Positions 12,202 through 43,588 of a stretch of 64,000 bases of DNA are shown one piece after another. Within the stretch, counting starts at the first letter, position 1. The number at the start of each line of letters is the position of its first letter. Where the stretch lies: assembly GCA_013298715.1 (NCBI GenBank), contig JAAFIQ010000013.1:1-64000 (forward strand), given 5' to 3'. This stretch comes from Bacteroidota bacterium. GTDB lineage: Bacteria; Bacteroidota; Bacteroidia; B-17B0; Aurantibacillaceae. A program made the translations under genes and the position numbers. The notes under the pieces were generated by a model, which saw nothing but the letters and a program-made list of their open reading frames with translations, did not search any database and was not told the origin of the DNA.

Positions 12202-14220
12202 TTACTCCAAAATCATAAACTCTGTTCTTCTATTCTTTGCTCTGCCCTCCTCGTTTGTGTTTGCTGCTATTGGTTTGCTTGGCCCATAACCTTTTGCTGT
12301 TATCCTTTTTGAATCAACCCCTAATTCTTCTAACATCCATTTTACAGAATGGGCACGGTTGGCGCTTAGTGCCTCGTTATCTTTAACTTTACCTACATCA
12401 TCGGTATGCCCTTGTATTTCTACTTTCATATCAGGATTTTCCTTTAAATAATTAGCAAATGCTTCTATTACAATTCTGCTTTCTAATTTTAAATCGGCAC
12501 TATTAGTGTTGTAATAAATATTTTCAATTACAAAACTTTTACCAGGTTTAGCTTCGGATACTTGTAAAGCAATTTCTTTTTTAGGAGAAGTGTAAGTAAT
12601 TTCTTTAGTACTAATAATTTTAGAATTAAACGCAATGCTATCTTTCTTTACAGAAATTAATATATCATCTTTCCGTTTTAAATTAATTGCTGCGGTATAC
12701 TCACCCGTTAAGCTATCAACAACCGCATACGTTTTTTGTTTGGTAACGGTATTCTTAATTTCAACTACTGCATCAGTAACAGCATTTCCTTTATCATCTT
12801 TTACCGATCCTTTTACAAAAGCAACAGTTTGGGGTCTGGCTTCGGGGTATAATTCAAAGTTGTACATGTCATATCTGCCAATGCCTTTACCGCTTACCTT
12901 GCCTTCATCAAAACTAAAAAAGTAGCCTGTTTTGGTATCGCTACTTACAAAAAAACCTGTGTCGTCTGTTGCACCATTTATTGGCGACCCTATATTTTCA
13001 GGCTCTTCCCATTCCCCTTTATCATTTTTTCTTACATAAAAAATATCATAACCTCCAAAGCCGTAATGCCCCGTGCTGCTGAAGTAGAGCGTTTCACTAT
13101 CGCTGTGTATAAATGGAGTTTTTTCATCACCTTTAGTATTTATTTTTGGGCCTAAATTTTTTGGCACACTCCACATTCCTGTTTTTAAATCTTTGGTGGT
13201 GAAGTATAAATCAATACCACCAAAGCCTCCGGGTCTATCGCTTGCAAAATAAAGCGTAATACCATCTGCCGCAATAGTTGGCTGACTATCCCAATATTTT
13301 GGATCGTTTACATTAGTACTTAACTTTTTATAATCGCTCCAACTGCCATCCGCAAAATCGCTTACGTAAATATCTACATTAGGCTGTGCGCCTCCTTCTT
13401 GGCGCTGCATCGCAAAGTATAAGTGTTTGTTATCAATAGATATAGAACATCCACCTTGATTGTCATCACTAGTATTAAAAGGGTTCATCATGGGTTCGCC
13501 ACTTGTAAATGTGTTGGTTTTATCGCGCTTAGCCACCATAAATACTTCTTTTTCTTTATCGCTTGTATAAACTTTATTCATATCTTTAATAGGTAAGCGT
13601 CGCACAAAATAGCACAACTGATCATCGGGTGATACATAACACAAATACTCATCGCGCTGGGTGCTAACTCCTTTTACTACTGCCGGATTAAAAGGAACGT
13701 TGCGTTTTAAACCTTTTTCCTTTTTCGCAGATTTTATCATCATTTTTGCTTGATATAATTCTGCTTCGTAATCTTTTGGAAATTTTTTTTCATCCTCGTC
13801 CTTAAAATCAATAAACTTGTTTAAATATTTTATAGCACTATCGTTTTTTAACTCTTCATAATAGCTGAAGCCTATATAATAATAAGGATCACTGTGTATT
13901 TGTGGGCACTTGGCTATTGCCTTTTTGAAATAGGGCACTAAAGGCGTAAAAGCTAAATTTTCTAATTTTGCTCGCACTACCATTTCTTGTGCCATGTATA
14001 AATTTGCCTCTGCAAAATCTGGCTCAATTTCTAAAGCTTTGGTTAAAAATTCTATACGTTCAGGTTTTTTATATTTTTTTTTATCGAGGGCTTTTTCGTA
14101 AAGCTTCAACGCTTTTTTATCAATGTTGTCATCGCACAATTTTGATTTATTTTCAGTTTCATCTTGCGAAAAAAAAGATAATGAGAAAAAGAAGAAAATA
14201 AAGAAGAAAATGTTTTTCAT
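12202..14220 (-). CDS. PorE-like OmpA-family envelope protein
   Basis: From the ATG at 14220 (MKNIFFFIFFFFSLSFFSQ signal) the protein has four parts. These are TPR-like helices (about 30-160), WD40/PD40 beta-propeller repeats (185-440; DIYVSDFADGSW, DLYFTTKDLKTGMW, DIFYVRKNDKGEW), a carboxypeptidase-regulatory-like fold (465-545), and an OmpA peptidoglycan-binding domain (560-672). The last carries IQGHTDDVG, NEALSANRA and KNRRTEF. This order is the one described for PorE, the peptidoglycan anchor of the T9SS. Several paralogues of this type occur per genome, so PorE identity is inferred. Two or three extra upstream codons exist in the open frame. Confidence 0.8.
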   Translation of the reverse strand: MKNIFFFIFFFFSLSFFSQDETENKSKLCDDNIDKKALKLYEKALDKKKYKKPERIEFLTKALEIEPDFAEANLYMAQEMVVRAKLENLAFTPLVPYFKKAIAKCPQIHSDPYYYIGFSYYEELKNDSAIKYLNKFIDFKDEDEKKFPKDYEAELYQAKMMIKSAKKEKGLKRNVPFNPAVVKGVSTQRDEYLCYVSPDDQLCYFVRRLPIKDMNKVYTSDKEKEVFMVAKRDKTNTFTSGEPMMNPFNTSDDNQGGCSISIDNKHLYFAMQRQEGGAQPNVDIYVSDFADGSWSDYKKLSTNVNDPKYWDSQPTIAADGITLYFASDRPGGFGGIDLYFTTKDLKTGMWSVPKNLGPKINTKGDEKTPFIHSDSETLYFSSTGHYGFGGYDIFYVRKNDKGEWEEPENIGSPINGATDDTGFFVSSDTKTGYFFSFDEGKVSGKGIGRYDMYNFELYPEARPQTVAFVKGSVKDDKGNAVTDAVVEIKNTVTKQKTYAVVDSLTGEYTAAINLKRKDDILISVKKDSIAFNSKIISTKEITYTSPKKEIALQVSEAKPGKSFVIENIYYNTNSADLKLESRIVIEAFANYLKENPDMKVEIQGHTDDVGKVKDNEALSANRAHSVKWMLEELGVDSKRITAKGYGPSKPIAANTNEEGRAKNRRTEFMILE

Positions 14221-27862: not shown

Positions 27863-28438
27863 ATGGCAATTAACCTACAAAAAGGTCAAAAAATTGATAT
27901 TGGCCTTAGCAAATTAAGTGTTGGTTTAGGATGGAACCCTAACCAAGGCACTGGTAATGATTTTGACTTAGACGCATCGGCATTTATGCTTACTGCAAGC
28001 AAACTTATTCCTGCAGATGAATATTTTGTATTTTATGGTAATACCGATTCGCCCGACAAAGCCTTGCACCATACAGGCGATGACCCAACTGGCGGAAATA
28101 GCGAAGATGGCGATGATGAAACAATTAAAGTAGATTTAGCAAACGTAAACGGAAGTATTGAAGAAATACTATTTGTAGTTACAATTCACGAAGCTACCAC
28201 ACGCAAACAAAATTTTGGGCAAGTGCGTAACTCCTACATTAGAATTGTTGATGATACCAATAATCAAGAAATTGCAAAATATGAATTAGGCGAAGATTTT
28301 TCAATAGAAACTGCGGTAGAATTTGGTCGCCTTTACAAACGTGATGGCGCATGGAAATTTGAAGCAAGTGGTATTGGTTATAAAGAAGATTTGGCTTACT
28401 TTGTAGGTAAATATTTTAAAGGGGACATTATTAAATAA
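27863..28438 (+). CDS. terD: TerD-domain protein 1
   Basis: A 191-residue TerD/CABP fold. It starts MAINLQKGQKIDIG, followed by the KLSVGLGWNPNQ strand and DFDLDASAFML. The acidic calcium-binding segments are HHTGDDPTGGNSEDGDDE and EDFSIETAVEFGRLYKRD. TerD proteins bind Ca2+ and cooperate with membrane and kinase partners in Ter stress systems. It heads the 10.5-kb co-directional ter cluster, 139 bases after ribH. TACTTTAG at 27838 resembles a -7 box. Copy 3 (30776) is its closest relative here. Confidence 0.95.
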   Translation: MAINLQKGQKIDIGLSKLSVGLGWNPNQGTGNDFDLDASAFMLTASKLIPADEYFVFYGNTDSPDKALHHTGDDPTGGNSEDGDDETIKVDLANVNGSIEEILFVVTIHEATTRKQNFGQVRNSYIRIVDDTNNQEIAKYELGEDFSIETAVEFGRLYKRDGAWKFEASGIGYKEDLAYFVGKYFKGDIIK

Positions 28439-28465
28439 CACCTTAACTAAAAACAAAAATAAAAC

Positions 28466-29125
28466 ATGGCAATTAACCTAACAAAAGGACAACGCATAGA
28501 TTTAAGAAAGTCAAGCGGGTCTACCCTTACAGAGTTTTGCGTTGGCGTAAACTGGGGAGCAATTGAAAAGAAAGCATTTTTTGGTTTATCAAAAACTGCA
28601 ACACAAGTTGACTTAGATTTAAGTTGTGTAATGATTGATAGCAACGGTCAGGTTTCTGATCATTTGTATTCGCCAGATTACAAACCAGATTTGTTAGCAA
28701 AATTTGGATTACCAGCCGGAAAATTAATTTCACGCAACAGCGCACTGCGTCACTCAGGCGATGACAGAGCTGGTGATACAGGAGGTGATGATGGATTAGA
28801 CAACGAAGTTATTACAGTAAATTTAACTGCTGTAGACCCAACTATTTCGCAAATATTTTTCTTTTTAAACAACGTGGGTCCAGAAGACTTCTCGCAAATT
28901 CCTTACGCTAAAATACGCATGTACGAAGGTACGCCAAGCAAAGTAAAAGAAGTATTTGCTGGCTATAACGTAGCTGCTGAGCCACAATACGCTGGTAAAA
29001 AAGCATTAATTATGGGTAAACTTTACAAAAAAGATACAGAGTGGAAATTTAATGCCATTGGCGACCCAACAGAAGATGTGTTTTTAGGGCAAACCATTCA
29101 GCGTATTGTAAAATCATACCTATAA
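28466..29125 (+). CDS. TerD-domain protein 2 (TerZ/TerX-like)
   Basis: A 219-residue TerD-family protein with an insertion. MAINLTKGQRIDLRKSSG opens it, then FCVGVNWGAIE and a DLDLSCVMID strand. The calcium-site loop HSGDDRAGDTGGDDG is longer than in its sisters, and LYKKDTEWKFNAIGDP is near the end. The LRKSSG start and extra loop match the TerX/TerZ branch. It is 27 bases after TerD 1. The protein is divergent enough that it must have a distinct role in a mixed TerD assembly. Confidence 0.9.
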   Translation: MAINLTKGQRIDLRKSSGSTLTEFCVGVNWGAIEKKAFFGLSKTATQVDLDLSCVMIDSNGQVSDHLYSPDYKPDLLAKFGLPAGKLISRNSALRHSGDDRAGDTGGDDGLDNEVITVNLTAVDPTISQIFFFLNNVGPEDFSQIPYAKIRMYEGTPSKVKEVFAGYNVAAEPQYAGKKALIMGKLYKKDTEWKFNAIGDPTEDVFLGQTIQRIVKSYL

Positions 29126-29189
29126 TAAATTTTTTAATGAATGAGTGAATATTTCCAAAAATCTTCTCATTCTAAAAAATAAAAAAACG

Positions 29190-29912
29190 ATGGTGAATTC
29201 ACAATTAAACTCTCAAAACCTATCGTTTTCAACTATACAACACGTATCATTTGATGTTTGGCTAACACTTATAAAATCAAACCCAACATTTAAAACAGAA
29301 CGTGTAAATTTATTAAAGCACTTCTTTAAAATCCCACATTCGGTTGATGAAATTACTTCATTAATTCGCTTGTGGGATTTGCGTTTTACAAAACTTAATG
29401 AGCTTTCAGGATTGTCTATTGACAGTAGAGAAATGTATTTCCTTTTACTTTTACAACTAGATGCCGATGAGGGCTTAATGCACGAAGCGTTTTTGAACAA
29501 CTATTATTTAGAACAAGAAGAACTCTTTTTTAAATACCACCCAACGTTGATTGAAGAAAATTTACAAGAACTGTTGATTAAACTAAAACAAAAAAATATA
29601 AGTTTAAGTATTTATAGCAACACAGGTTTTATAGATGGCAGCACCTTACGTAAATTATTTTTAAAATTAAATGTTGGTAATCTATTCGATTTTCAATTAT
29701 ACTCAAATGAACTAAACTGCTCAAAGCCCTCACACAAAGCATTTCAGCACATTAAAAACGAAGTAGCAAAAATTAAATACATTGATTCTAATTCAATTTT
29801 ACACATAGGTGATAATCCTGTAGCTGATTATGGCGGCGCAATAAACGCTGGCATGCAAGGCGCAATAATTAATTCGAACGGCCTTACATTAAATCAGTTA
29901 ATAATAAGTTAA
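29190..29912 (+). CDS. HAD-superfamily hydrolase of ter cluster
   Basis: From ATG 29190, 240 residues. HAD motif I is SFDVWLTLIKSNP, keeping the nucleophile Asp; the second (acid/base) position is Trp, as in some dehalogenase-like HADs. Motif II is SIYSNTGF, the Lys motif lies near SKPSHKAF, and motif IV is HIGDNPVADYGGAINAG. HAD phosphatases accompany PRTases in Ter operons, where a nucleotide-like metabolite has been proposed. A GTG at 29145 would add 15 residues. It sits 64 bases after TerD 2 and 55 before the PRTase. Confidence 0.8.
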   Translation: MVNSQLNSQNLSFSTIQHVSFDVWLTLIKSNPTFKTERVNLLKHFFKIPHSVDEITSLIRLWDLRFTKLNELSGLSIDSREMYFLLLLQLDADEGLMHEAFLNNYYLEQEELFFKYHPTLIEENLQELLIKLKQKNISLSIYSNTGFIDGSTLRKLFLKLNVGNLFDFQLYSNELNCSKPSHKAFQHIKNEVAKIKYIDSNSILHIGDNPVADYGGAINAGMQGAIINSNGLTLNQLIIS

Positions 29913-29967
29913 TTTTAAACACCGTTTTAAAAATTAACTTTATAAAAAATTATTTTAATAATTAGTA

Positions 29968-30786
29968 ATGTACCACTACTTCTCCTTACATAAAATAGCA
30001 AACGAAAAGCAATTACCCTTTAATGCTGCGCAATACAGCAAATTCAAATTTGGTGATGCGGAATCCACCAATCAGTTTTCTTTAGAACTGGCAACAGCTT
30101 TTATTGAACAAAATAAAACGTTCTTGCTCCAAAATACTGATATTGTTTTTTTACCAAGCCCGTTTAACCACATCCCTACTGCATCTTATCACCTTTCTCA
30201 ATTATTTAAGCAAGAAGTGAATCGTTTTTTATTTCAACATCAAAAAAAATCATTACTCGAATCTAAGATTCATCGCTACAAAACCTATAGTCAAGATTAC
30301 GGTAACTTGAATTTTGAAGAACGCTTAAACCTTATTTCATCAGACACTTACCACATCGATACAAAATTTTTAACCAACCGCTTATGCATATTTATTGATG
30401 ATATTAAAATAACTGGTAGTCATGAAATGATAATTAAAAAAATTATTCAGCAAAATAATATTGAAGGCGAATTTATGTTTGTGTATTTTGCCGAACTCAC
30501 CAATAAAAACATTGCCCCCACTTTCGAAAATTATTTAAACTATTATTTTGTGAAAGGAAATACGGAAATAATAGATATTCTAAACAGTAAAAATGTTAAA
30601 TATAACACACGCTGCATTAAATATATATTAAATGAGCAAAATCCAATAAAATCTCTTATTTTAGAGGTTCAAAATTCTACACTGCAAACTATTGTAGATT
30701 TTGCAATTGGAAATAATTACCACTTAATGGAAGAATATAAAAACAATTTAAACTTAATTATAAAACACATAAATTATGGCAATTAA
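29968..30786 (+). CDS. phosphoribosyltransferase-like protein of ter cluster
   Basis: A 272-residue protein. The segment RLCIFIDDIKITGSHEMIIK is a type I PRTase PRPP-binding loop (hydrophobic strand, DD, two residues, TG). An earlier IVFLPSPFNHIPTASYHLSQ strand-loop fits the start of the fold. Ter-associated PRTases were predicted to act on a nucleoside-like compound with HAD partners. The final 80 residues are helical and unassigned. Its last 11 bases overlap TerD 3, showing tight coupling. Confidence 0.7.
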   Translation: MYHYFSLHKIANEKQLPFNAAQYSKFKFGDAESTNQFSLELATAFIEQNKTFLLQNTDIVFLPSPFNHIPTASYHLSQLFKQEVNRFLFQHQKKSLLESKIHRYKTYSQDYGNLNFEERLNLISSDTYHIDTKFLTNRLCIFIDDIKITGSHEMIIKKIIQQNNIEGEFMFVYFAELTNKNIAPTFENYLNYYFVKGNTEIIDILNSKNVKYNTRCIKYILNEQNPIKSLILEVQNSTLQTIVDFAIGNNYHLMEEYKNNLNLIIKHINYGN

Positions 30787-31327
30787 TTTACAAAAAGGTC
30801 AACGCGAAAACCTTAACGCACAAAAATTTACAATTGGTCTTGGTTGGGATACCAATGCAAGCTCTACTGGCAGCGGCTTTGATTTAGATGCTTCTGTTTT
30901 TATTTTAGGAGCAAATTCAAAATTATTGGCCGATGAGTATTTTGTTTTTTACAACAACAAACAATCACCAGATGGAGCTGTCGTTCATGCCGGCGATAAC
31001 ACAACTGGTGATGGTGATGGTGACGATGAATCAATCACCGTTGATTTATCAAAAATAAATCCTGCAGTAAATGAAATTTGTGTGGTAGTTACAATCCACG
31101 AAGCAGCAGAAAGAAAACAAAACTTTGGACAAGTACGTAATTCATTTATTCGTGTGGTTGATAACGATAACAATGTATTAGTGAAATACGATTTGGATGA
31201 AGATTTTTCAATTGAAACAGCTGTTGAGTTTGGAAGAATTTACAAAAAAGATACACAATGGAAATTTGAAGCCATTGGTGCAGGTATGAAAGGTGGATTA
31301 GAAGATTACATTAAAAAATACAGTTAA
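30776..31327 (+). CDS. terD: TerD-domain protein 3
   Basis: A 183-residue TerD. MAINLQKGQRENLN is followed by FTIGLGWDTNASS, FDLDASVFIL, the acidic loop HAGDNTTGDGDGDDES and the shared EDFSIETAVEFGRIYKKD. It is very like TerD 1, including VVVTIHEAAERKQNFGQVRN, which is nearly the same in both. It begins inside the PRTase gene and ends 10 bases before the first TerY-like gene. Confidence 0.95.
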   Translation: MAINLQKGQRENLNAQKFTIGLGWDTNASSTGSGFDLDASVFILGANSKLLADEYFVFYNNKQSPDGAVVHAGDNTTGDGDGDDESITVDLSKINPAVNEICVVVTIHEAAERKQNFGQVRNSFIRVVDNDNNVLVKYDLDEDFSIETAVEFGRIYKKDTQWKFEAIGAGMKGGLEDYIKKYS

Positions 31328-31337
31328 TAAAATTATT

Positions 31338-31976
31338 ATGAGAAGATTACCCGTTTACTTATTACTCGATACATCAGGCTCTATGAGCGGCGAGCCAATT
31401 GAAGCCGTTAAAAATGGCGTTCAAGTTATGATTAGCTCTTTGCGTCAAAACCCGCAAGCTATTGAAACCGCTTTTATAAGTGTAATTACTTTTGATAGCA
31501 GTGCGCGTCAATTAATTCCGCTTACAGATTTGGCTTCCTTTCAAATGCAAGAAATTAAAGCAAATGGCACAACCAGTTTAGGTGAAGCATTAAACTTAGT
31601 TTCTAATTGTATATTAAACGAAGTAAAACAAACTACTGCCGAAAGCAAAGGCGACTGGAAACCCTTAGTATTTATTATGACCGATGGTGTTCCAACTGAT
31701 AATTGGCAAAGTGGCTTAGCAGAATTTAAAAAACGTAAGGTAGCGTTTACCGTTGCGTGTGCGGCGGGTAGCGGTGCAGATACCAATGCCCTAAAACAAA
31801 TTACTGATAATGTAGTTAGTTTAGATACCGCAGATGGCGCAAGTATTGCAAAATTCTTTGCGTGGGTTACCGCTTCAATTGGTGTTACATCTACAAAAGT
31901 AGAAGATGCAGGAAAAGAAGTAACTACCATGAATGAGTTGCCACCACCACCATCAGAGTTAAATATTGTTGTGTAA
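31338..31976 (+). CDS. terY: TerY-like von Willebrand A protein 1
   Basis: A 212-residue vWA domain. RRLPVYLLLDTSGSMSGEPI supplies the DxSxS metal-site motif; the Thr (NGTTSLGEAL) and the FIMTDGVPTD Asp complete the MIDAS. GDWKPLVFIMTDG is the TerY hallmark. The tail ELPPPPSELNIVV is a short Pro-rich end that recurs in copy 2. These proteins probably bind phosphorylated or metal-bearing partners in Ter complexes. No signal peptide is present, so it is cytosolic. Confidence 0.92.
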   Translation: MRRLPVYLLLDTSGSMSGEPIEAVKNGVQVMISSLRQNPQAIETAFISVITFDSSARQLIPLTDLASFQMQEIKANGTTSLGEALNLVSNCILNEVKQTTAESKGDWKPLVFIMTDGVPTDNWQSGLAEFKKRKVAFTVACAAGSGADTNALKQITDNVVSLDTADGASIAKFFAWVTASIGVTSTKVEDAGKEVTTMNELPPPPSELNIVV

Positions 31977-31988
31977 AAAAATTTTGTT

Positions 31989-32624
31989 ATGAGAAGATTA
32001 CCTGTTTATTTCTTACTCGATACATCAGGCTCTATGTATGGCGAACCCATACAAGCCTTAAACAATGCGCTAAGTGGCATGATTAACACTTTGCGCTCTG
32101 ACCCACAAGCTTTAGATTCTTTGTGGTTGAGCATTATTACGTTTGATAAAGAAGTAAAACAATTAATGCCACTTACGGAGTTGGTAAACTTTCAATTACC
32201 CGAAATTGTTTGCCCACAAAGCGGACCAACCAATATGGGTGAGGCGTTGATGTTGCTTTGCAAAACCGTAAAACAAGATATGCGCAAAGGTACCGAAGAC
32301 CAAAAGGGTGATTGGAAGCCTTTGTTGTTTTTAATGACGGATGGTAGTCCATCGGATTTATTACAATTTAAAGAAGCCGTTCCGCAAGTAAAAGCAATTA
32401 ACTTTGGTGCTATTATTGCCTGCGCAGCTGGTCCAAAATCGAAGGATGAATTTTTAAAAGAAATTACAACCAACGTTGTACACCTAGACACTGCCGATAG
32501 CCTTACTTTAAAATCTTTCTTTAAATGGGTGTCTGATACAATCGAGAACGGAAATAAAAGTGCTGGTGTTACAGAAGAGTTGGCGCTACCTACTCCTCCA
32601 TCAGAAGTGCACTTAGTAATTTAA
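31989..32624 (+). CDS. terY: TerY-like von Willebrand A protein 2
   Basis: A 211-residue vWA domain, tandem relative of the preceding gene 12 bases away. MIDAS pieces are LLDTSGSMYGEPI, GPTNMGEAL and FLMTDGSPSD, followed by CAAGPKSKDEFLKEIT and the tail LPTPPSEVHLVI. Keeping two near-identical plans but different loop sequences suggests they act as distinct subunits. The next gene starts three bases later. Confidence 0.92.
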   Translation: MRRLPVYFLLDTSGSMYGEPIQALNNALSGMINTLRSDPQALDSLWLSIITFDKEVKQLMPLTELVNFQLPEIVCPQSGPTNMGEALMLLCKTVKQDMRKGTEDQKGDWKPLLFLMTDGSPSDLLQFKEAVPQVKAINFGAIIACAAGPKSKDEFLKEITTNVVHLDTADSLTLKSFFKWVSDTIENGNKSAGVTEELALPTPPSEVHLVI

Positions 32625-32627
32625 TTT

Positions 32628-32894
32628 ATGCGAACATTATTTTTATTACTCACCCTTGCTCTTAATGCCGCAATTGTTGGGCTTTTTCTTTATTCAAAAC
32701 TATTGCCTTATAAAGATAAACTAACAGGTAATTACAAAAGTATTTTTAATTTTTTTGATAATTTGTACACGCCCGTTTTTAATGGTTTAAAAAAATCATT
32801 TAAACCGCATCAAGTAGGTATAGGATTGTTTATTGACATGACACAATTTATCTTACTTATAATTCTACTTTTATTATTAAACTTTTTAACCTAA
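32628..32894 (+). CDS. small two-helix membrane protein of ter cluster
   Basis: An 88-residue protein with membrane helices at about 3-23 and 66-87. Between them lies a soluble loop, KSIFNFFDNLYTPVFNGLKK, then SFKPHQVGIGLFIDMTQ. The P..NGLKK.FKP..VG.G.D pattern recalls YggT-type proteins, but the match is loose. It sits between vWA genes with only three bases to the upstream stop, so it belongs to the same transcript and may anchor the complex to the membrane. Confidence 0.6.
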   Translation: MRTLFLLLTLALNAAIVGLFLYSKLLPYKDKLTGNYKSIFNFFDNLYTPVFNGLKKSFKPHQVGIGLFIDMTQFILLIILLLLLNFLT

Positions 32895-32937
32895 CTAATT
32901 TTTAAAAAAAAATATGATTAACAACTTCGACTCAAAA

Positions 32938-33336
32938 ATGAGCACACAAGAGCTCAAACAAAAAATAGCGGTAGGCGCTAAATTTGTTAGGTTTGAATAT
33001 ACCATTTCCATTTTAGTTGCTACATTTAAACGCAGTAGTGGGCTATATTTTATAGACGCAGGAGAAAGCTCAGCAAAGTTTAGTTGGTACTTAAGTTTGC
33101 TAACTGCAGTTTTGGGCTGGTGGGGCATTCCGTGGGGACCAATTTATACAATCGGAACTTTTGTTACAAACTTTGGTGGCGGAAAAGATTATACCCAACA
33201 AGTAATGCACTCCTTATTATCTCACGAACAACAACATGCTGCAATAAATAACCAAGCCACTCCAGGTGGTTATGGCATCAACAATCAAACTAATAATTCT
33301 AATTCAAATAGCGGTGGCTATAACATTCCTCGTTAA
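32938..33336 (+). CDS. conserved membrane protein with GWWGIPWGP motif
   Basis: From ATG 32938 (MSTQELKQKIAVGAKFVRFE) 132 residues. Two hydrophobic beta/helix segments surround FKRSSGLYFIDAGESSAKFS and LGWWGIPWGPIYTIGTF, followed by NFGGGKDYT and an Asn/Gly-rich tail. I know this motif set from uncharacterised membrane proteins, with no function. The ATG at 32914 would add eight residues. It is likely a membrane component of the ter locus. Confidence 0.6.
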   Translation: MSTQELKQKIAVGAKFVRFEYTISILVATFKRSSGLYFIDAGESSAKFSWYLSLLTAVLGWWGIPWGPIYTIGTFVTNFGGGKDYTQQVMHSLLSHEQQHAAINNQATPGGYGINNQTNNSNSNSGGYNIPR

Positions 33337-33360
33337 TTAAAAATTTAAAATAAAAATACA

Positions 33361-34437
33361 ATGAGAAGATTACCCATTTATTTTTTAATAGACATTTCAG
33401 AGTCTATGGTTGGTGAACCAATTAAACAAGTTGAAGAAGGTTTAGCAACAATTATTAAAGAATTAAAAACCGATCCTTATTCTATTGAAACTGTTTGGGT
33501 TTCTATTATTGTATTTGCAGGGCAACCAAAAACAATTGTACCGTTACAAGAAATAATAAATTTTTATCCGCCCCGTTTCCCAATTGGTGGCGGCACTTCG
33601 CTAAGCAAAGGGCTTGGGCATTTGATGTATGAATTGCGTAAAAATATTGTAACAACAACCATTGAAAGAAAAGGTGATTGGAAACCCATAGTATTTTTAT
33701 TTACCGATGGAGCACCAACCGATGATACAACTTCCGCCATCAGCGAATGGAAAGCAAATTGGGCACGCACTGCAAACATGGTTGCGGTTTCTTTTGGCGA
33801 AGAAGCCGATATGCACTTACTTTCGCAAATGACAGAAAACGTATTGCATTTTAAAAACACAGATGCCAGTTCATACAAATCATTTTTTAAATGGGTTACA
33901 GATTCCATAAAAACAAGCAGTGTAGCTGTTGAAAATAATACCGGTAGTTTTGATTTGGCAAAAATTGATAATGACACCTTATCAAAAGCAGATGTGAAAG
34001 AGATGCCTAACGCACCAGGAAATTCAAACTCGGCTTCATCCTTTATGGTGGATAGTAATTTTGTTGTACTGGCTGGCAAATGCCAAAATACAAAGCGTCC
34101 ATACTTAATGAAATATAAAAAATCGCTAACAGGTTCTGGCATTTATGCAGGACTCGAAACACTTGCCTACCGCTTAGTTGGCGCTTTTCAAGTAGATAAT
34201 AGTTATTATGAATTATGCGACGATAATCAAGGAAAAGTAAAAATAAATACGAGCGAATTAATTGGCGTGCCAACCTGTCCATGCTGCGGCAATCAATATG
34301 CCTTTGCAATGTGTGGTTGCGGAAAAATTCATTGCATTGGCGACGAAGAAGAAAGCACGTGCGCTTGGTGCAACAGCAAAGGTAAATACGGTAGCGGTGG
34401 TAGCGGTGGATTTGATGTTACACGAGCCCAAGGTTAA
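33361..34437 (+). CDS. terY: TerY with C-terminal zinc ribbon (TerY_C)
   Basis: A 358-residue protein. Residues 1-190 form the vWA domain with LIDISESMVGEPI, GGGTSLSKGL and FLFTDGAPTDD. A linker rich in Asn/Ser (200-230) leads to a TerY_C module with six to eight cysteines in pairs: PTCPCCGNQYAFAMCGCGKI, then HCIGDEE and CAWCNSKGKYG. This three-gene order, vWA-zinc ribbon then PP2C then kinase (two-base gaps), is the TerY-P triad described by Aravind and colleagues. The C-terminal gly-rich end is unusual. Confidence 0.92.
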   Translation: MRRLPIYFLIDISESMVGEPIKQVEEGLATIIKELKTDPYSIETVWVSIIVFAGQPKTIVPLQEIINFYPPRFPIGGGTSLSKGLGHLMYELRKNIVTTTIERKGDWKPIVFLFTDGAPTDDTTSAISEWKANWARTANMVAVSFGEEADMHLLSQMTENVLHFKNTDASSYKSFFKWVTDSIKTSSVAVENNTGSFDLAKIDNDTLSKADVKEMPNAPGNSNSASSFMVDSNFVVLAGKCQNTKRPYLMKYKKSLTGSGIYAGLETLAYRLVGAFQVDNSYYELCDDNQGKVKINTSELIGVPTCPCCGNQYAFAMCGCGKIHCIGDEEESTCAWCNSKGKYGSGGSGGFDVTRAQG

Positions 34438-34439
34438 AA

Positions 34440-35852
34440 ATGGACAGAACCGAAAAGTATTTAAGTTCATTATTTGAAAGCTATAAGCTACCAGTAAGCG
34501 AGAAGCGCAAAAAACTTTTTGAAGAATTTGTAATTGATTCGGAGAATGTTGAAATGGTAAACACAATTGTAACAAATCAAAAAAAGATGGTTGATTCTTG
34601 GAAAATAAAAAATTTAATTGCAGATGTAAATGAAAAACAACTGCTAATACCAAACGCTACAGTTGATAAAAAATATGAAGCTGAGTTTAGTTTAAAAAAA
34701 TACAACTTAACCGAAATTTCAGATTTTGAAATTGAAGGCTTAGAAAATGCTGGTGAACTCTCGTTTGAAAAGGCTCTTGGAAAAATAACAGGTACACCAA
34801 AAAATAGTGGTGAGTTTAAATTAACTTTTAAATTCAAGTTAAAAGCACAAAGCGAAGATTCAGCTTTTAATGAAAAGCAAATTTCATTTATTGTAAATCC
34901 AAACCCAAAATCGTTGTGGAAAGATTTACCAAGCGATACAACAGATACCTATTGGAAAGAAGATAATGAAACCATTTACAGTAAACTAGGCGATAAACAA
35001 TTGGTTGTTTCTTCAAAACGCGGAAGAAGCCATGCCAACGTTGGCTCGTTTAGAGATGATGATTTTGCATACACTCACATTGAATCTAACGGTTGGAGTG
35101 TGGTTGCAGTATCAGATGGTGCAGGTAGCGCTAAGATTAGCCGTTATGGCTCCAAACTTGCTTGCCAAACAATTGTAGATTATTTTATTGATAAATTAAA
35201 CGATGAGTTTTCAGCTTCGTTTAGTAAGCTTATTGAAGATAATCACAACACACCAAGCGATGAAATTAAAAAAGAATTAAGTTTAAGTATTTATAATTTA
35301 ATTGGTGGTGCTGCTAATCAAACACACAAAACATTAAACGAATATGCAACTACAAATAATTTTACATTAAACGATTTAAACAGTACATTAATTTACACAG
35401 TATTTAAAACATTTTCGTTTGGTACTGTAGTTTTAAGTTTTGGTGTTGGCGATTGCCCAATTGCACATCTATCAAAAGATTTAAGTGAAGTTAAATTGCT
35501 TAATTGGTTAGATGTTGGCGAGTTTGGTGGTGGCACACGTTTTATTACTACAACGGAAATATTTGCTTCTCAAAAATTTGCAAGCAGAATAAATTTTAAA
35601 ATTATAGAAAACTTTGGTTATTTATTTTTAATGACGGATGGCATTTACGATGCAAAATTTGTAGTAGAAGCCAATTTAGAAAAGTTAGAAACATGGAAAG
35701 AATTTGTTGCCGATTTGAATGGAAATAACGAAAGTAGTATAAAAGTAAATTTAGAAGAAAATAATTCTAACCTCTGCAACGAATTATCTGAATGGATGGA
35801 TTTTTGGAGTCCTGGAAATCATGATGACAGAACCTTAGCAATTGTATTTTAA
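34440..35852 (+). CDS. PP2C-type phosphatase with Ig-like N-terminal region
   Basis: A 470-residue protein. Residues about 60-160 have the putative-Ig/cadherin pattern (LTEISDFEIEGLENAGELSF, then LGKITGTPKNSGEFKL), unusual for a cytosolic phosphatase. The PP2C fold follows, about 195-470: RSHANVGSFRDDDF, AVSDGAGSAKISRYGS (metal-binding DGAGS for the usual DGMGG), VLSFGVGDCPIAHL, FLMTDGIYDAKF and GNHDDRTLAIVF. It is the phosphatase of the TerY-P triad and presumably opposes the next-door kinase. Confidence 0.9.
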   Translation: MDRTEKYLSSLFESYKLPVSEKRKKLFEEFVIDSENVEMVNTIVTNQKKMVDSWKIKNLIADVNEKQLLIPNATVDKKYEAEFSLKKYNLTEISDFEIEGLENAGELSFEKALGKITGTPKNSGEFKLTFKFKLKAQSEDSAFNEKQISFIVNPNPKSLWKDLPSDTTDTYWKEDNETIYSKLGDKQLVVSSKRGRSHANVGSFRDDDFAYTHIESNGWSVVAVSDGAGSAKISRYGSKLACQTIVDYFIDKLNDEFSASFSKLIEDNHNTPSDEIKKELSLSIYNLIGGAANQTHKTLNEYATTNNFTLNDLNSTLIYTVFKTFSFGTVVLSFGVGDCPIAHLSKDLSEVKLLNWLDVGEFGGGTRFITTTEIFASQKFASRINFKIIENFGYLFLMTDGIYDAKFVVEANLEKLETWKEFVADLNGNNESSIKVNLEENNSNLCNELSEWMDFWSPGNHDDRTLAIVF

Positions 35853-35854
35853 TT

Positions 35855-37366
35855 ATGAGCAAATTAGTAACAGTAAAATCAATCATAGATACAACTAAAA
35901 CGTATCAATACCTTGATAATGGCGAACCTATGCGCGGTGGCATGAAAGACGTTTTTTTTAGTGCAGATAGAACGTATGTAGTTGCTTTGTTTAGAGATGT
36001 TCAAGACTTTAATTCTAGAGAACGCTTAAAAAAAATTGCAACAACTTACCGTGAGTCTTTTTTTAATAAAGAGGGCGGAGAGTATTATAAAACCTTGTTT
36101 TGCTGGCCTTATGATGTAGTAGAAAAAGATAAACAAATCGGCATTATTGTTCCTACTTACGATAAAAAGTTTTTGTTTCAAAAAGGATACGCCACACAAG
36201 ATTTAATTAAAGGAAAAGAAAAAGAAGGAAAATGGTTTGCATCGCCAAAATTTAGAAACAAACAATTTGCCTTGCGCTTAGATGATTCAGAATTAGGTAC
36301 GTGGTTAAACTTTTTTCAAATTGCAGTAAACATTTCGCGTGGTGTAAAACGTATGCACGCTGCGGGTTTAGCGCACTCTGATTTATCTTACAAAAACGTT
36401 TTGATTGATCCGGTAACAAAATCGGCAAATATTATTGATATTGATGGCTTGGTTGTTCCAGGAATTTTTCCACCAGATGTGATTGGAACAGCTGATTTTA
36501 TTGCTCCAGAAGTATTGGCAACAAAGCATCTTAAAAAAGATGACCCCAATAGAAAACTCCCTAACCGCTTAACAGATTTACACGCGCTTTCTGTTTTAAT
36601 TTATATGTTCCTCCTTTACCGTCATCCATTAAAAGGTGGCAAGGTTCATGATTTAGATACCGAGAAAGACGATTTATTATCAATGGGTGAAAAAGCGTTG
36701 TTCATAGAGCATCCAACTGATACAAGCAATCGCCCTAAAGCAAGTCAGTTCAACCCAAAAGAATTGCCTTGGGTTGATATTACAAAAATTCCGTATACTG
36801 TTACTGGGCCTTATTTGGTTGAATTATTTAATCAAGCATTTATAAACGGATTACACGCCCCTAATAACAGACCTACGGCAGACCAATGGGAACAAGCCTT
36901 ATTAAAAACAACCGATTTAATGCAACCTTGCTCAAACAAAAGTTGTGAGCAAAAATGGTATGTGTTTAATAATACTACTACACCCAAATGTCCGTTTTGC
37001 GGTACTGCGCATAAAGGAACATTGCCAGTGTTAGATTTGTATGCACAATTTAAACCAGGCGAATGGAAACCAATTAATCATAGGTTAATGGTTTACCACG
37101 ACCAGTATTTATTTTCGTGGCATGTAAATAACAATGTAATACGCAACGAACGCTTAACAGAGCCACAAAAAAAACCAGTTGGCTATTTTAAATTAATGGG
37201 CGACAAATGGATTTTTGTAAATCAAACCCTAACAAGTTTAAAAGATGTAAGCGAAAACATAGATATACCAATAGGTGGAACAGTGGAGTTGAGCGAAGGT
37301 AAAAAAATATTGTTATCAAAAGAAGATGGTGGCAGATTGGTTTTTGTAACCTTGGCGAATAAGTAG
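35855..37366 (+). CDS. TerY-P triad protein kinase with zinc ribbon
   Basis: A 503-residue protein. The kinase fold spans about 25-350. The catalytic loop is AGLAHSDLSYKNVLID, and the metal-binding segment ANIIDIDGLVV stands in for DFG. The beta-3 strand is TYVVALFRD, with no Lys at the usual VAIK position. A zinc ribbon has CSNKSCEQKWY and CPFCG at about 360-390. A C-terminal beta domain (400-503; MVYHDQYLFSWHV, GGTVELSEGKKILL) looks FHA-like but degenerate. It is the third gene of the triad. Confidence 0.88.
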   Translation: MSKLVTVKSIIDTTKTYQYLDNGEPMRGGMKDVFFSADRTYVVALFRDVQDFNSRERLKKIATTYRESFFNKEGGEYYKTLFCWPYDVVEKDKQIGIIVPTYDKKFLFQKGYATQDLIKGKEKEGKWFASPKFRNKQFALRLDDSELGTWLNFFQIAVNISRGVKRMHAAGLAHSDLSYKNVLIDPVTKSANIIDIDGLVVPGIFPPDVIGTADFIAPEVLATKHLKKDDPNRKLPNRLTDLHALSVLIYMFLLYRHPLKGGKVHDLDTEKDDLLSMGEKALFIEHPTDTSNRPKASQFNPKELPWVDITKIPYTVTGPYLVELFNQAFINGLHAPNNRPTADQWEQALLKTTDLMQPCSNKSCEQKWYVFNNTTTPKCPFCGTAHKGTLPVLDLYAQFKPGEWKPINHRLMVYHDQYLFSWHVNNNVIRNERLTEPQKKPVGYFKLMGDKWIFVNQTLTSLKDVSENIDIPIGGTVELSEGKKILLSKEDGGRLVFVTLANK

Positions 37367-37396
37367 GTTATAAATTCTATCAATTCCCTTTTATTA

Positions 37397-38431
37397 ATGT
37401 ATCACGTTGTAAGAAATAATCAAAAGTTTGGGCCCTATTCGCTTCAGCATTTAAAGCAATATGTTGAAGAAGGAAAAATTTTATTGAGCGATAAAGCCGT
37501 TGATGTAAACACAAACCAAGAAGAAAGCGTAAAACATTTTTTAAGAACAAATAATGTTTCCTACTCTATAAAGGATAAAGGAAGCATACTTGAACAAATA
37601 AAATTTATTGGTAAAGATTTACTGTTACCAAAAAAAGATTTTTTAACCAAAGAAATAATAAAAGACAGACGGTTGATTTACCTTGCGGCTATTGGTTTGT
37701 TGCCTGCTTTTTTAATTACATTTACTTTTGCTTCGCAAATAACTTTTTATGTTATTGCACTTTACTTCTCTGCCATTTGGGGATTATTTTTTTATTATCT
37801 GTTTGCAACCAAGCAAGTAAAAACAAAAGAAACCATTATCATTTTTTTTCTTACACAGGTTACAGCCCTTATCCTTGTTAACTTGCAGAGCTTTCCGCCT
37901 TTTAGTTGGTTGTATGGTTTAACCGATTCTAATTTTATTTTGTTTAGATTAATTGGCTTTGTTTTTGGTGTAGGCTTTACTGAAGAAACTATAAAAGCAC
38001 TACCTCTAATTTATTTAATTTACAAAACTAAGGAGCCAATTATACCACAAACACTGGTGTTTTACGGCCTCATATCGGGTATTGGTTTTGGTGTTTTAGA
38101 AGGCGTAATTTATCAAACAGGTGTAAACAAAGAATTAAATTACGAGTCGGCATTTTTTATGAATGTGGCGCGCTTAACCAGTTTACCATTTTTACACGCC
38201 ACATGGGCCGCCATCGCCGGGTATTTTTTAGCCTTTGCAAATATTTTACCAAGGTACCGCAAAGGATTAATTTTTATTGCCATAGCTGTACCTGCTATTT
38301 TACATGGTATTTACGATGTTTTTGGTTGGAATTTAATTGGCTTAGCTACAACAATTTTGTCAGTTATATTATTAGTTTTTTATTTAAAGAAAAGCTCTGA
38401 TTATCAAGCTAAGTTGAATCAAGGGAATTGA
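37397..38431 (+). CDS. GYF_2-PrsW intramembrane protease
   Basis: A 344-residue protein. The N-terminal GYF_2 domain (YHVVRNNQKFGPYSLQHLKQ, residues 2-60) is fused to a PrsW-type membrane metalloprotease with about eight helices. The metal/catalytic motifs are GFTEETIKALPLIY, FGVLEGVIYQTG and FLHATWAAIAGYF. PrsW proteases cut anti-sigma factors or cleave membrane substrates. It follows the kinase by 30 bases in the same direction and is probably the output or regulatory arm of the ter cluster. The substrate is unknown. Confidence 0.85.
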   Translation: MYHVVRNNQKFGPYSLQHLKQYVEEGKILLSDKAVDVNTNQEESVKHFLRTNNVSYSIKDKGSILEQIKFIGKDLLLPKKDFLTKEIIKDRRLIYLAAIGLLPAFLITFTFASQITFYVIALYFSAIWGLFFYYLFATKQVKTKETIIIFFLTQVTALILVNLQSFPPFSWLYGLTDSNFILFRLIGFVFGVGFTEETIKALPLIYLIYKTKEPIIPQTLVFYGLISGIGFGVLEGVIYQTGVNKELNYESAFFMNVARLTSLPFLHATWAAIAGYFLAFANILPRYRKGLIFIAIAVPAILHGIYDVFGWNLIGLATTILSVILLVFYLKKSSDYQAKLNQGN

Positions 38432-42970: not shown

Positions 42971-43588
42971 ATGGCTAAAGTTAAAGAAGTTTGGAAACAC
43001 TTAGAAATTAATGGGAAAAAATCGAATTTACCTTACTACGTTTCTAACCTTGGCAGAATAGGCTTGATGGAAGTTAATGATAAAGTAAAAATTGTGATTA
43101 ACAAAATAAAAGACAGAAATCAACGCATTAAAGTACGTGTAAAGAATAAAGATTTAAGTGCTTCTTTAGGTAAATTAGTTGCCACCGCTTTCCTAAAAAA
43201 AGAAAATTCTAAAAAAACAATGGTGATTCATAAAGATCATGACTACACCAACACCAACGTCGATAACTTAAAATGGGTAACTCCTGAAAAACACAGGGAG
43301 CATACCAACAATAGCCCTGCAAGCATTAAAGCACGTAAAAATAAAATTATTACCGCTAAAAGTTTTGCTAAAGTCCTTACCGAAAAACAAGTTAAAGAAA
43401 TTAAAACATTGATTTGGTCAGATAAAAGAAAAGTAACCTACCAACAAATTGCAGAAAAATATGGTGTTTCAAACATGCAGATTTACAGAATTAAACGAGG
43501 CGAAATTTGGTTTCATGTAAAAGTTGAAAACGAACCAGAATCAAAAAAGTACAAACACTATTTGTCAAATCTTAAAAAGATAAAATAG
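42971..43588 (+). CDS. NUMOD4/HNH-type DNA-binding protein with HTH
   Basis: A 205-residue protein. A NUMOD4-like start (EVWKHLEINGKKSNLPYYVS, NLGRIG) leads to an HNH_3-like unit, MVIHKDHDYTNTNVDNLKWV. In it the His-Asn-Asn ligand pattern of homing-type HNH nucleases is mostly kept. A C-terminal resolvase-type HTH (RKVTYQQIAEKYGVSNMQIY) follows. It is not inside an intron or split gene; its flanks are metG and an LD-carboxypeptidase, six bases downstream. It may therefore serve as a DNA-binding regulator or a domesticated nuclease. Confidence 0.75.
   Translation: MAKVKEVWKHLEINGKKSNLPYYVSNLGRIGLMEVNDKVKIVINKIKDRNQRIKVRVKNKDLSASLGKLVATAFLKKENSKKTMVIHKDHDYTNTNVDNLKWVTPEKHREHTNNSPASIKARKNKIITAKSFAKVLTEKQVKEIKTLIWSDKRKVTYQQIAEKYGVSNMQIYRIKRGEIWFHVKVENEPESKKYKHYLSNLKKIK

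What the first reader, a model, noticed from the sequence alone, without database searches (positions are those of the whole stretch)
27863..38431. Thirteen-gene Ter-type signalling cluster without TerC, TerB or TerA
Read directly, thirteen genes on one strand with mostly tiny or negative gaps encode TerD (x3), HAD, PRTase-like, TerY vWA (x3), two small membrane proteins, PP2C, kinase and a GYF_2-PrsW protease. The TerY-P triad and TerD combination is established for Ter stress systems (Anantharaman, Iyer and Aravind). The absence of TerC, TerB and TerA/TelA and the attachment of an intramembrane protease are unusual. Inference: this is an envelope- or phage-sensing module whose output may be regulated proteolysis.
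Basis: partly seen in the sequence, partly recalled or inferred. Interest (0 to 1): 0.75.

Follow-up and report, generated by a model that had tools for sequence, protein, structure and literature searches.

The report
Ter stress operon with PrsW protease
This is a slimmed-down version of a known bacterial stress-signalling operon whose usual metal transporter gene sits elsewhere in the genome; comparing its relatives shows that the transporter position is filled by exchangeable calcium or manganese transporters, a strong hint at what the whole system controls.

Summary
The thirteen genes are real and form a Ter/TerY-P cluster of a known kind. "Without TerC" is a matter of linkage: the genome carries an unlinked TerC, 82% identical to the TerC inside the sister cluster of UBA4416. 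TelA is absent from the held genome, but it is out of view in 41 of 80 related clusters too. TerB was not searched genome-wide. The GYF-PrsW protease is a recurrent minority part: 6 of 80 clusters, next to TerC in all six, and a clade of its own. The two small membrane proteins are common (50 and 36 of 80).

The unexpected result concerns the slot after the kinase, which PrsW fills here. In 71 of 77 relatives a divalent-cation transporter of one of four kinds lies there: Alx-type TerC, YkoY-type TerC, Na+/Ca2+ exchanger or calcium P-type ATPase. Seven genomes with exchanger or ATPase show no Ter-type TerC anywhere; nine with no transporter in the cluster all have a TerC elsewhere. Two Flavobacterium clusters are 94% identical over 13.3 kb, then carry different TerC types from the start codon on. 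I read the system as a metal-sensing phospho-switch on calcium/manganese transport, with PrsW as optional regulator. Whether the swapping is already in print could not be checked in the key 2012 paper.

The parts
27863..28438 (+). TerD paralogue 1 (191 aa)
   Evidence: PF02342 4.4e-68; 86% identical to the first TerD of the G044 cluster
28466..29125 (+). divergent TerD paralogue (219 aa)
   Evidence: PF02342 7e-29 in two stretches; 87% to G044 copy
29145..29912 (+). HAD hydrolase (255 aa as listed; GTG start uncertain)
   Evidence: PF13419 2e-09; HAD in view in 54 of 80 related clusters
29968..30786 (+). PRTase_3, ComF-like phosphoribosyltransferase domain (272 aa)
   Evidence: PF15610 1.1e-73; in view in 55 of 80 clusters
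30776..31327 (+). TerD paralogue 2 (183 aa)
   Evidence: PF02342 1.2e-71; 86% to the TerD copy that follows PRTase_3 in G044
31338..31976 (+). vWA protein 1 (212 aa), C-terminal tail ELPPPPSELNIVV
   Evidence: PF00092 1.8e-15; tail strongly conserved in relatives
31989..32624 (+). vWA protein 2 (211 aa), C-terminal tail LPTPPSEVHLVI
   Evidence: PF00092 1.1e-13; tail family conserved
32628..32894 (+). small hydrophobic (probably membrane) protein, 88 aa
   Evidence: no Pfam family; homologues in 50 of 80 clusters, in the printed rows between vWA2 and TerY_C
32914..33336 (+). small, probably membrane, protein of 140 aa with a conserved GWWGxPWGPxYT motif
   Evidence: no Pfam family; homologues in 36 of 80 clusters; invariant residues in 16 aligned; modest AlphaFold model, pLDDT 67
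33361..34437 (+). TerY: vWA plus TerY_C metal-binding domain (358 aa)
   Evidence: PF15616 9.7e-50, PF00092 4.1e-13
34440..35852 (+). PP2C phosphatase (470 aa)
   Evidence: PF13672 1.9e-27
35855..37366 (+). protein kinase of the TerY-P triad (503 aa)
   Evidence: PF00069 3.3e-09; 84-85% to UBA4416 copy; C-terminal cysteine pairs read by eye
37397..38431 (+). GYF-PrsW glutamic-type intramembrane protease (344 aa), in the slot after the kinase
   Evidence: PF13367 2.2e-17; GYF_2 22.4 bits, below the cut-off of 25.8; predicted model resembles APH-1 plus GYF domains, weakly by E-value; full-length orthologues at 6 of 80 Ter clusters

Best explanation
It is a reduced Bacteroidota Ter/TerY-P operon. 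Metal-binding proteins in the cytoplasm (TerD, vWA with TerY_C) report divalent-cation or envelope stress to a kinase/PP2C pair. The pair controls a membrane complex whose core effector is a divalent-cation (Ca2+/Mn2+) transporter. In relatives that transporter is encoded after the kinase, as a YkoY- or Alx-type TerC, a Na+/Ca2+ exchanger or a calcium P-type ATPase. In this genome it is a YkoY-type TerC encoded elsewhere. PrsW is an optional add-on, probably docking through its GYF domain on the proline-rich tails of the two vWA proteins and cleaving or clearing a membrane partner such as TerC. Shown here: gene content, conservation, slot swapping, complementation by genome content, PrsW clade. 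Inferred: direction of signalling, the ion moved, GYF docking, PrsW substrate.
For: Membership of the cluster: Pfam, same order in UBA4416/G057, and kin clusters in 80 named loci. Slot after the kinase: of 77 clusters with the whole kinase in view, 44 Alx-type TerC, 22 YkoY-type TerC, 3 Na/Ca exchanger, 2 Ca-ATPase, 6 none. Family identity of representatives: YkoY TIGR03716, Alx TIGR03718 and PMCA TIGR01517 over their cut-offs, PF01699 over its cut-off. Complementation: 0 of 7 genomes with exchanger or ATPase have a Ter-type TerC of at least 60% identity; 9 of 9 with no transporter in the cluster have one elsewhere. Scatter: 15 changes among the four transporter types on the kinase tree. Recent swap: L059 vs L057, 93.9% over 13,345 columns, ending within 5 bp of the TerC start codon. 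Own TerC 82% to the cluster-linked TerC of G057. PrsW: one clade, 100/100; next to TerC in 6 of 6. A like tail motif in a betaproteobacterium.
Against: No experiment. The ion carried by these TerCs is unknown; TerC relatives in print are linked to Mn2+ (and Zn2+) rather than Ca2+ in what I saw. YkoY-type TerC also occurs in 8 of 145 relatives without TerY_C, so it is not exclusive to Ter. The exchangers score under the NCBIfam cut-off for the Ca/Na antiporter model (125-135 vs 180 bits). The 60% line was drawn after seeing the data, several genomes are close kin, and L040, L103 and L108 of the seven exchanger/ATPase genomes are MAGs that may be incomplete. P-type ATPases were not searched in the other genomes. 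The proline tails are conserved in clusters without PrsW, so they cannot exist for PrsW alone. GYF support is weak. Many clusters also carry HAD/PRTase_3, which fit a metabolite output. A slot next to the kinase may be filled by linkage alone, without regulation.
Confidence: 0.6

Rival explanations
1. The main output is a diffusible metabolite: HAD and PRTase_3, with other biosynthetic genes in other Ter clusters, make a nucleoside-like compound, and the transporter is a side component.
For: HAD and PRTase_3 in view in 54 and 55 of 80 clusters; HpcH, StiP and PRTase genes beside Ter genes in Aromatoleum and Azospirillum, ATP-grasp in Aromatoleum; the title of the 2012 Ter paper names such a metabolite (reference list seen; paper not held).
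Against: 25 of 80 clusters have no PRTase_3 in view, some stretches being cut, while 71 of 77 have a transporter near the kinase.
Confidence: 0.2
2. One reading: a phage- or envelope-sensing module whose output is regulated proteolysis by PrsW.
For: Close full-length PrsW relatives were seen only at Ter clusters in this sampling; phage phenotypes of terC/terD/terZ mutants are cited in PMC12054061 (passages); TerY-P-like modules are reported as antiphage in passages of PMC11090510.
Against: PrsW is in 6 of 80 clusters and its distribution needs 7 changes on the kinase tree, so proteolysis by PrsW cannot be the core output; no PADLOC family except weak kinase matches among nine proteins scanned.
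Confidence: 0.12
3. The window cluster is decaying: it lost TelA, X324, two TerD genes and TerC and is no longer functional.
For: Relatives G044 and G057 have TelA and X324, and G044 more TerD genes; the TerY_C cluster is sparse, 5 of 150 relatives.
Against: All thirteen frames are intact with short gaps; TerD1, TerDx, TerD2, vWA, TerY and kinase are 81-90% identical to copies in a sister genus, PP2C 59-61%; TelA is out of view in 41 of 80 clusters; TerC is kept elsewhere in the genome.
Confidence: 0.06

Closest known systems
Ter / TerY-P systems (Anantharaman, Iyer and Aravind 2012; recalled, paper not held)
   Same: TerD, vWA, TerY_C, PP2C and kinase in one cluster, as also in plasmids of Aromatoleum, Azospirillum and Conchiformibius
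   Different: No TerC, TerB or TelA in the cluster; GYF-PrsW after the kinase; 88-aa and 140-aa small proteins
Ter cluster of Bacteroidetes bacterium UBA4416 (G057 = L034)
   Same: TerD-vWA1-vWA2-88aa-140aa-TerY_C-PP2C-kinase-PrsW in the same order, 59-90% identity
   Different: UBA4416 also has TelA and X324 in the cluster, and TerC directly after PrsW
TerY-P triad attached to restriction systems (CoCoNuTs, PMC11090510, passages read)
   Same: vWA + PP2C + kinase triad
   Different: No CoCoNuT helicase or nuclease gene among the seven flanking genes scanned in Pfam
TerC family of B. subtilis (MeeF, MeeY) and Alx
   Same: Own unlinked TerC falls in the YkoY family, TIGR03716; abstract start of PMC12096827 in a listing describes Mn metalation
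   Different: Here linked by gene order in relatives to a Ter kinase triad
PrsW (glutamic-type intramembrane protease)
   Same: PF13367 match; EExxK and two His invariant in 7
   Different: 35 bits against a cut-off of 225 for the PrsW equivalog model; N-terminal GPY motif absent from the first 40 residues of 18 other PrsW homologues compared

Membership tests
Ter / TerY-P system | TerD-family genes in the cluster | tested here: met
   three genes, PF02342
Ter / TerY-P system | TerY-P triad: vWA/TerY, PP2C and kinase adjacent | tested here: met
   33361-37366
Ter / TerY-P system | TerC encoded in the genome | tested here: met
   G000:C6:99047-99808, 82% to cluster-linked TerC of G057
Ter / TerY-P system | TerC linked to the cluster | tested here: not met
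   all three PF03741 hits lie on contigs C6, C1 and C23, none on C5. Not universal: 6 of 77 relatives also have no transporter in view near the kinase
Ter / TerY-P system | TelA present | tested here: not met
   0 matches in G000; present in G003, G044, G057. Not universal: in view in 39 of 80 clusters
Ter / TerY-P system | TerB present in the genome | not tested
   no search of PF05099 was made; none of the thirteen proteins matched it
PrsW glutamic intramembrane protease | PrsW domain with conserved Glu and His residues | tested here: met
   PF13367 63.7 bits vs 23.5; E196 E197 E235 H267 H303 invariant in 7
PrsW glutamic intramembrane protease | curated PrsW equivalog score | tested here: not met
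   35.2 vs 225 bits
GYF domain | curated GYF_2 score | tested here: not met
   22.4 vs 25.8 bits; 3 of 7 members match at E<=0.01
GYF domain | GYF fold | tested here: inconclusive
   Foldseek probability 0.98-0.99 to four solved GYF domains among the 50 listed, but E about 1-2
Known anti-phage defence system | match to a defence family model | tested here: not met
   9 of the 13 proteins scanned in PADLOC, only weak PD-T4-6 kinase matches
Divalent-cation transport switch | changes cell Ca2+/Mn2+ | not testable with these tools
   needs an assay

The most novel reading that the evidence does not exclude
Ter/TerY-P operons are a general metal-sensing phospho-switch with a plug-in port after the kinase gene. 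Unrelated divalent-cation exporters (two TerC types, Na+/Ca2+ exchanger, PMCA-type Ca2+-ATPase) are exchanged there whole, so the long-sought function of Ter is control of cytoplasmic Ca2+ (or Mn2+) during membrane insult. GYF-PrsW, docked on the proline tails of the vWA proteins, is a second, proteolytic control on that exporter.
Probability: 0.35. Interest if true: 0.8.

Novelty: new variant of a known kind. Interest (0 to 1): 0.6.

Why it matters
What the ter genes do has been unclear for decades (recalled): they affect tellurite, colicin, phage and oxidant resistance without an agreed mechanism. If nature keeps replacing TerC, in place, by calcium pumps and exchangers, then TerC in this system probably does the same job, and ion homeostasis could explain all these phenotypes, since pore-formers, phage entry and oxidants disturb cation gradients. 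That makes a direct test possible: swap the transporter and measure the ion. The Ter-linked GYF-PrsW adds a testable link between Ter signalling and intramembrane proteolysis.

Tried and rejected
Integration island at tRNA-Ala: RecF, TPR and RibH upstream are conserved in 9 of 11 relatives' stretches fetched (the other 2 show RibH alone), but no match to Mdh, the 319-aa gene or MetG and no tRNA gene was found in any of the 11, so no empty site was shown; L151 has only about 2 kb after ribH. PrsW tied to one TerC type: rejected, 3 of 6 with each. PrsW tied to the small membrane proteins: rejected, 3 of 6 with the 88-aa and 2 of 6 with the 140-aa family. PrsW homologue on a Deinococcus plasmid (31% over residues 63-334): no Ter genes annotated around it. 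Phage-borne copies: one weak kinase match in 50,697 phage records. A further sample of TerY_C clusters in the family of G453 gave 2 of 397, both already known. Structure of the 140-aa protein: low confidence, not searched further. TerB and TerA proper: not searched genome-wide.

A count of my own that was wrong: searches used a frame finder that lets a longer antisense frame mask a gene; it missed the TerC of L080, which lies about 30 bp after its kinase. A six-frame recount and relabelled tree replace those numbers. L080 moved from 'none' to YkoY-type, and the complementation count fell from 10 of 10 to 9 of 9.

Dropped before counts: of the 80 loci, L033 and L099 have no kinase in the stretch and L044 only a cut one. 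The 9 unnamed-genome loci, and L020, L022 and L023, are not in the 80. L033 and L034 are the same contigs as the G044 and G057 stretches. Only the best 80 of 435 candidates were kept, so the sample leans to close relatives. PrsW tree: of 23 loci with remote homologues 18 gave an ORF, and only the 11 shorter than 300 aa were used.
Full report
What is there. The thirteen genes at 27863-38431 are real, intact and on one strand, with gaps from -11 to 55 bp. Pfam names TerD x3, HAD, PRTase_3, vWA x3 (the third with TerY_C), PP2C, kinase and PrsW; the 88-aa and 140-aa genes are unnamed. Upstream is ribH, downstream tRNA-Ala(GGC) and a lactate/malate-dehydrogenase gene. The cluster is the only TerD and TerY_C site found in the held genome (4.01 Mb, 46 contigs, completeness 99.99).

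How rare it is nearby. TerY_C is found in 5 of 150 relatives, own genome included, and in 10 of 395 genomes drawn from the phylum, own included. It is therefore an accessory cluster. The kinase is 85% identical to that of UBA4416, another genus of the same family, but 74% to that of G003 in the same genus, which speaks for transfer rather than simple descent.

Is TerC missing? Not from the genome. PF03741 gives three TerC genes in G000, on C6, C1 and C23. The C6 copy is 82%, 80% and 74% identical to the TerCs that follow the kinase or PrsW in G057, G044 and G003; the other two own copies are about 25% identical to it. It stands beside glycosyltransferase-like genes (read by eye). In G057 the order is kinase-PrsW-TerC, so the window looks like the same arrangement from which TerC has left (inference). 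TelA is absent from the held own genome and present in G003, G044 and G057. Compared with G044, the block TerD-TelA-X324-TerD between TerD2 and vWA1 is missing. TelA is in view in 39 of 80 related clusters, so its absence is common, though some stretches are cut.

Conservation of the unusual parts. I fetched 80 named clusters by TerY_C (435 candidates existed and only the best 80 were kept). By a six-frame profile count the 88-aa family is in 50, the 140-aa family in 36, and full-length PrsW in 6: UBA4416, Flavobacterium lacisediminis, a Flavobacterium MAG, a Spirosoma MAG, a Bacteroidia MAG and a Flavobacteriia MAG. Five have kinase-TerC-PrsW with 2-30 bp between TerC and PrsW; UBA4416 has kinase-PrsW-TerC with 48 bp between the last two (starts as found mechanically). 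In 150 relatives only G057 has a close PrsW (61% over the full length); the other 23 with a match are 24-32% and match part of the protein only. Genomes beyond these 150 were not searched for PrsW away from Ter clusters, except the plasmid collection, which gave one remote match. The seven Ter-linked PrsWs, window included, form one clade against 11 others (100/100). All seven have a GPY motif near the start; none of 18 others do. On the kinase tree PrsW needs 7 changes for 7 carriers (at least 6 forced), so it is gained or lost often. In L072 against L092, DNA identity of 91% ends 7 bp past the TerC stop, just before PrsW begins.

The slot after the kinase. Of 77 clusters with the whole kinase in view, 44 have an Alx-type TerC, 22 a YkoY-type TerC, 3 a Na+/Ca2+ exchanger, 2 a P-type ATPase and 6 none of these. 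In 69 of the 71 it lies within about 400 bp of the kinase on the same strand; in L034 PrsW and in L093 a PRTase_3-like gene stand between. The types were assigned by best profile or BLAST match and checked by curated models on representatives only: TIGR03716 (own, L059), TIGR03718 (L046, L057, L072), TIGR01517 PMCA (L106, L108), PF01699 (L040, L073, L103, L143, L023). The four exchangers tested fall below the NCBIfam antiporter cut-off (125-135 vs 180 bits). In L023 (G087) the exchanger precedes the TerD genes instead.

Complementation test. For 16 genomes whose cluster has no TerC beside the kinase I searched whole genomes with both TerC types and the exchanger. Seven have an exchanger or ATPase in the cluster (L040, L073, L103, G453, G087; L106, L108): none has a Ter-type TerC (best identities 26% short type, 42% long type, both in G538). 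Nominal Fisher p = 9e-5, not corrected for kinship; the 60% line was set after seeing the gap, and L040, L103 and L108 are MAGs. G352 has both types. P-type ATPases were not searched elsewhere. Against exclusivity: 8 of 145 relatives without TerY_C also have a YkoY-type TerC of at least 60% (set).

Swaps in place. On the kinase tree (93 rows) the four transporter types need 15 changes when rows without a transporter are left out, and 19 with 'none' as a fifth group, against 35 in shuffles. The exchanger appears at five separate places (at least three forced by well-supported branches). That tree is a quick one, and L023 and other rows are long branches. The sharpest case is Flavobacterium sp. 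ov086 (L059) against F. bizetiae (L057): 13,345 columns at 93.9%, ending at L059 14013, while its TerC starts at 14009. L059 then has a YkoY-type and L057 an Alx-type TerC. A transposase-like frame lies near the contig end of L059 (read by eye). Three other pairs break within 1-12 bp of the kinase stop (L096/L087, L089/L097, L040/L097); one pair, L036/L101, loses alignment about 130 bp before it. Kinase followed by TerC also holds in Aromatoleum (one small gene between) and Conchiformibius plasmids; Azospirillum has TerC elsewhere in the cluster, and the Moraxella stretch and the Hymenobacter stretch show none annotated.

Mechanism. TerY-P triads are hypothesised to be a metal-sensing phosphorylation switch (passages of PMC11090510). 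TerC proteins are tied to Mn2+ metalation (PMC12096827, abstract start in a listing), and in Klebsiella the ter operon responds to Te, Zn and Mn (passages of PMC12054061). A slot that is refilled by calcium exchangers and pumps suggests that the regulated activity is divalent-cation export. TerD proteins are calcium binders (recalled). PrsW: the model has an N-terminal GYF-like domain and a helical core like APH-1 of gamma-secretase, but all Foldseek E-values exceed 0.06. The two short vWA proteins end in PPPP(S/A)E-like tails, with PPP in 134 of 149 tails, also where PrsW is absent, and similar tails occur in Aromatoleum. GYF domains bind proline-rich peptides (recalled; one solved match is such a complex), so docking of PrsW on these tails is a fair guess, not a result.

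Novelty. The system type is known. Searches for papers with PrsW and TerC gave 0; TerC, TerD, calcium and exchanger gave 3, none about this by title and abstract start; a wider search listed 10 of 16, none on this by title. The key 2012 paper is not held, so I cannot say that the transporter swapping is unreported. I rate it a new variant of a known kind.

Noticed in passing
L061 9372-10001; 209-aa genes in L064, L091, L102, L105, L111; L158 7071-7775: In Chitinophaga clusters the place between vWA2 and TerY_C holds a 209-aa gene (AIM24 family in L061; the others judged by length and position); Aromatoleum has a TIGR00266 family gene beside its TerD genes. The small-protein slot may be exchangeable too.
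   Followed up: partly
window 31338-32624; tails in related loci: Strongly conserved C-terminal tail PPPP(S/A)E-hydrophobic on both short vWA proteins, independent of PrsW; an unexplained docking motif.
   Followed up: partly
L019 5278-5969: A small gene plus a PIN-domain gene (toxin-antitoxin-like pair) sits between TelA and X324 inside the G044 Ter cluster.
   Followed up: no
L019 6062-7036 (X324): Unnamed 320-aa family without Pfam match at E<=0.01; present in exactly the same 39 of 80 clusters as TelA, so the two are a fixed pair.
   Followed up: partly
window 42971-43588: Small gene with sub-threshold HNH_3 and HTH matches between metG and a peptidase-like gene; looks like an HNH endonuclease.
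   Followed up: no
G000:C6:99047-99808: Own YkoY-type TerC stands on another contig, 82% to the Ter-linked TerC of UBA4416.
   Followed up: yes
L093: A PRTase_3-like gene lies between the kinase and TerC in this cluster, a further insertion at the same joint.
   Followed up: no
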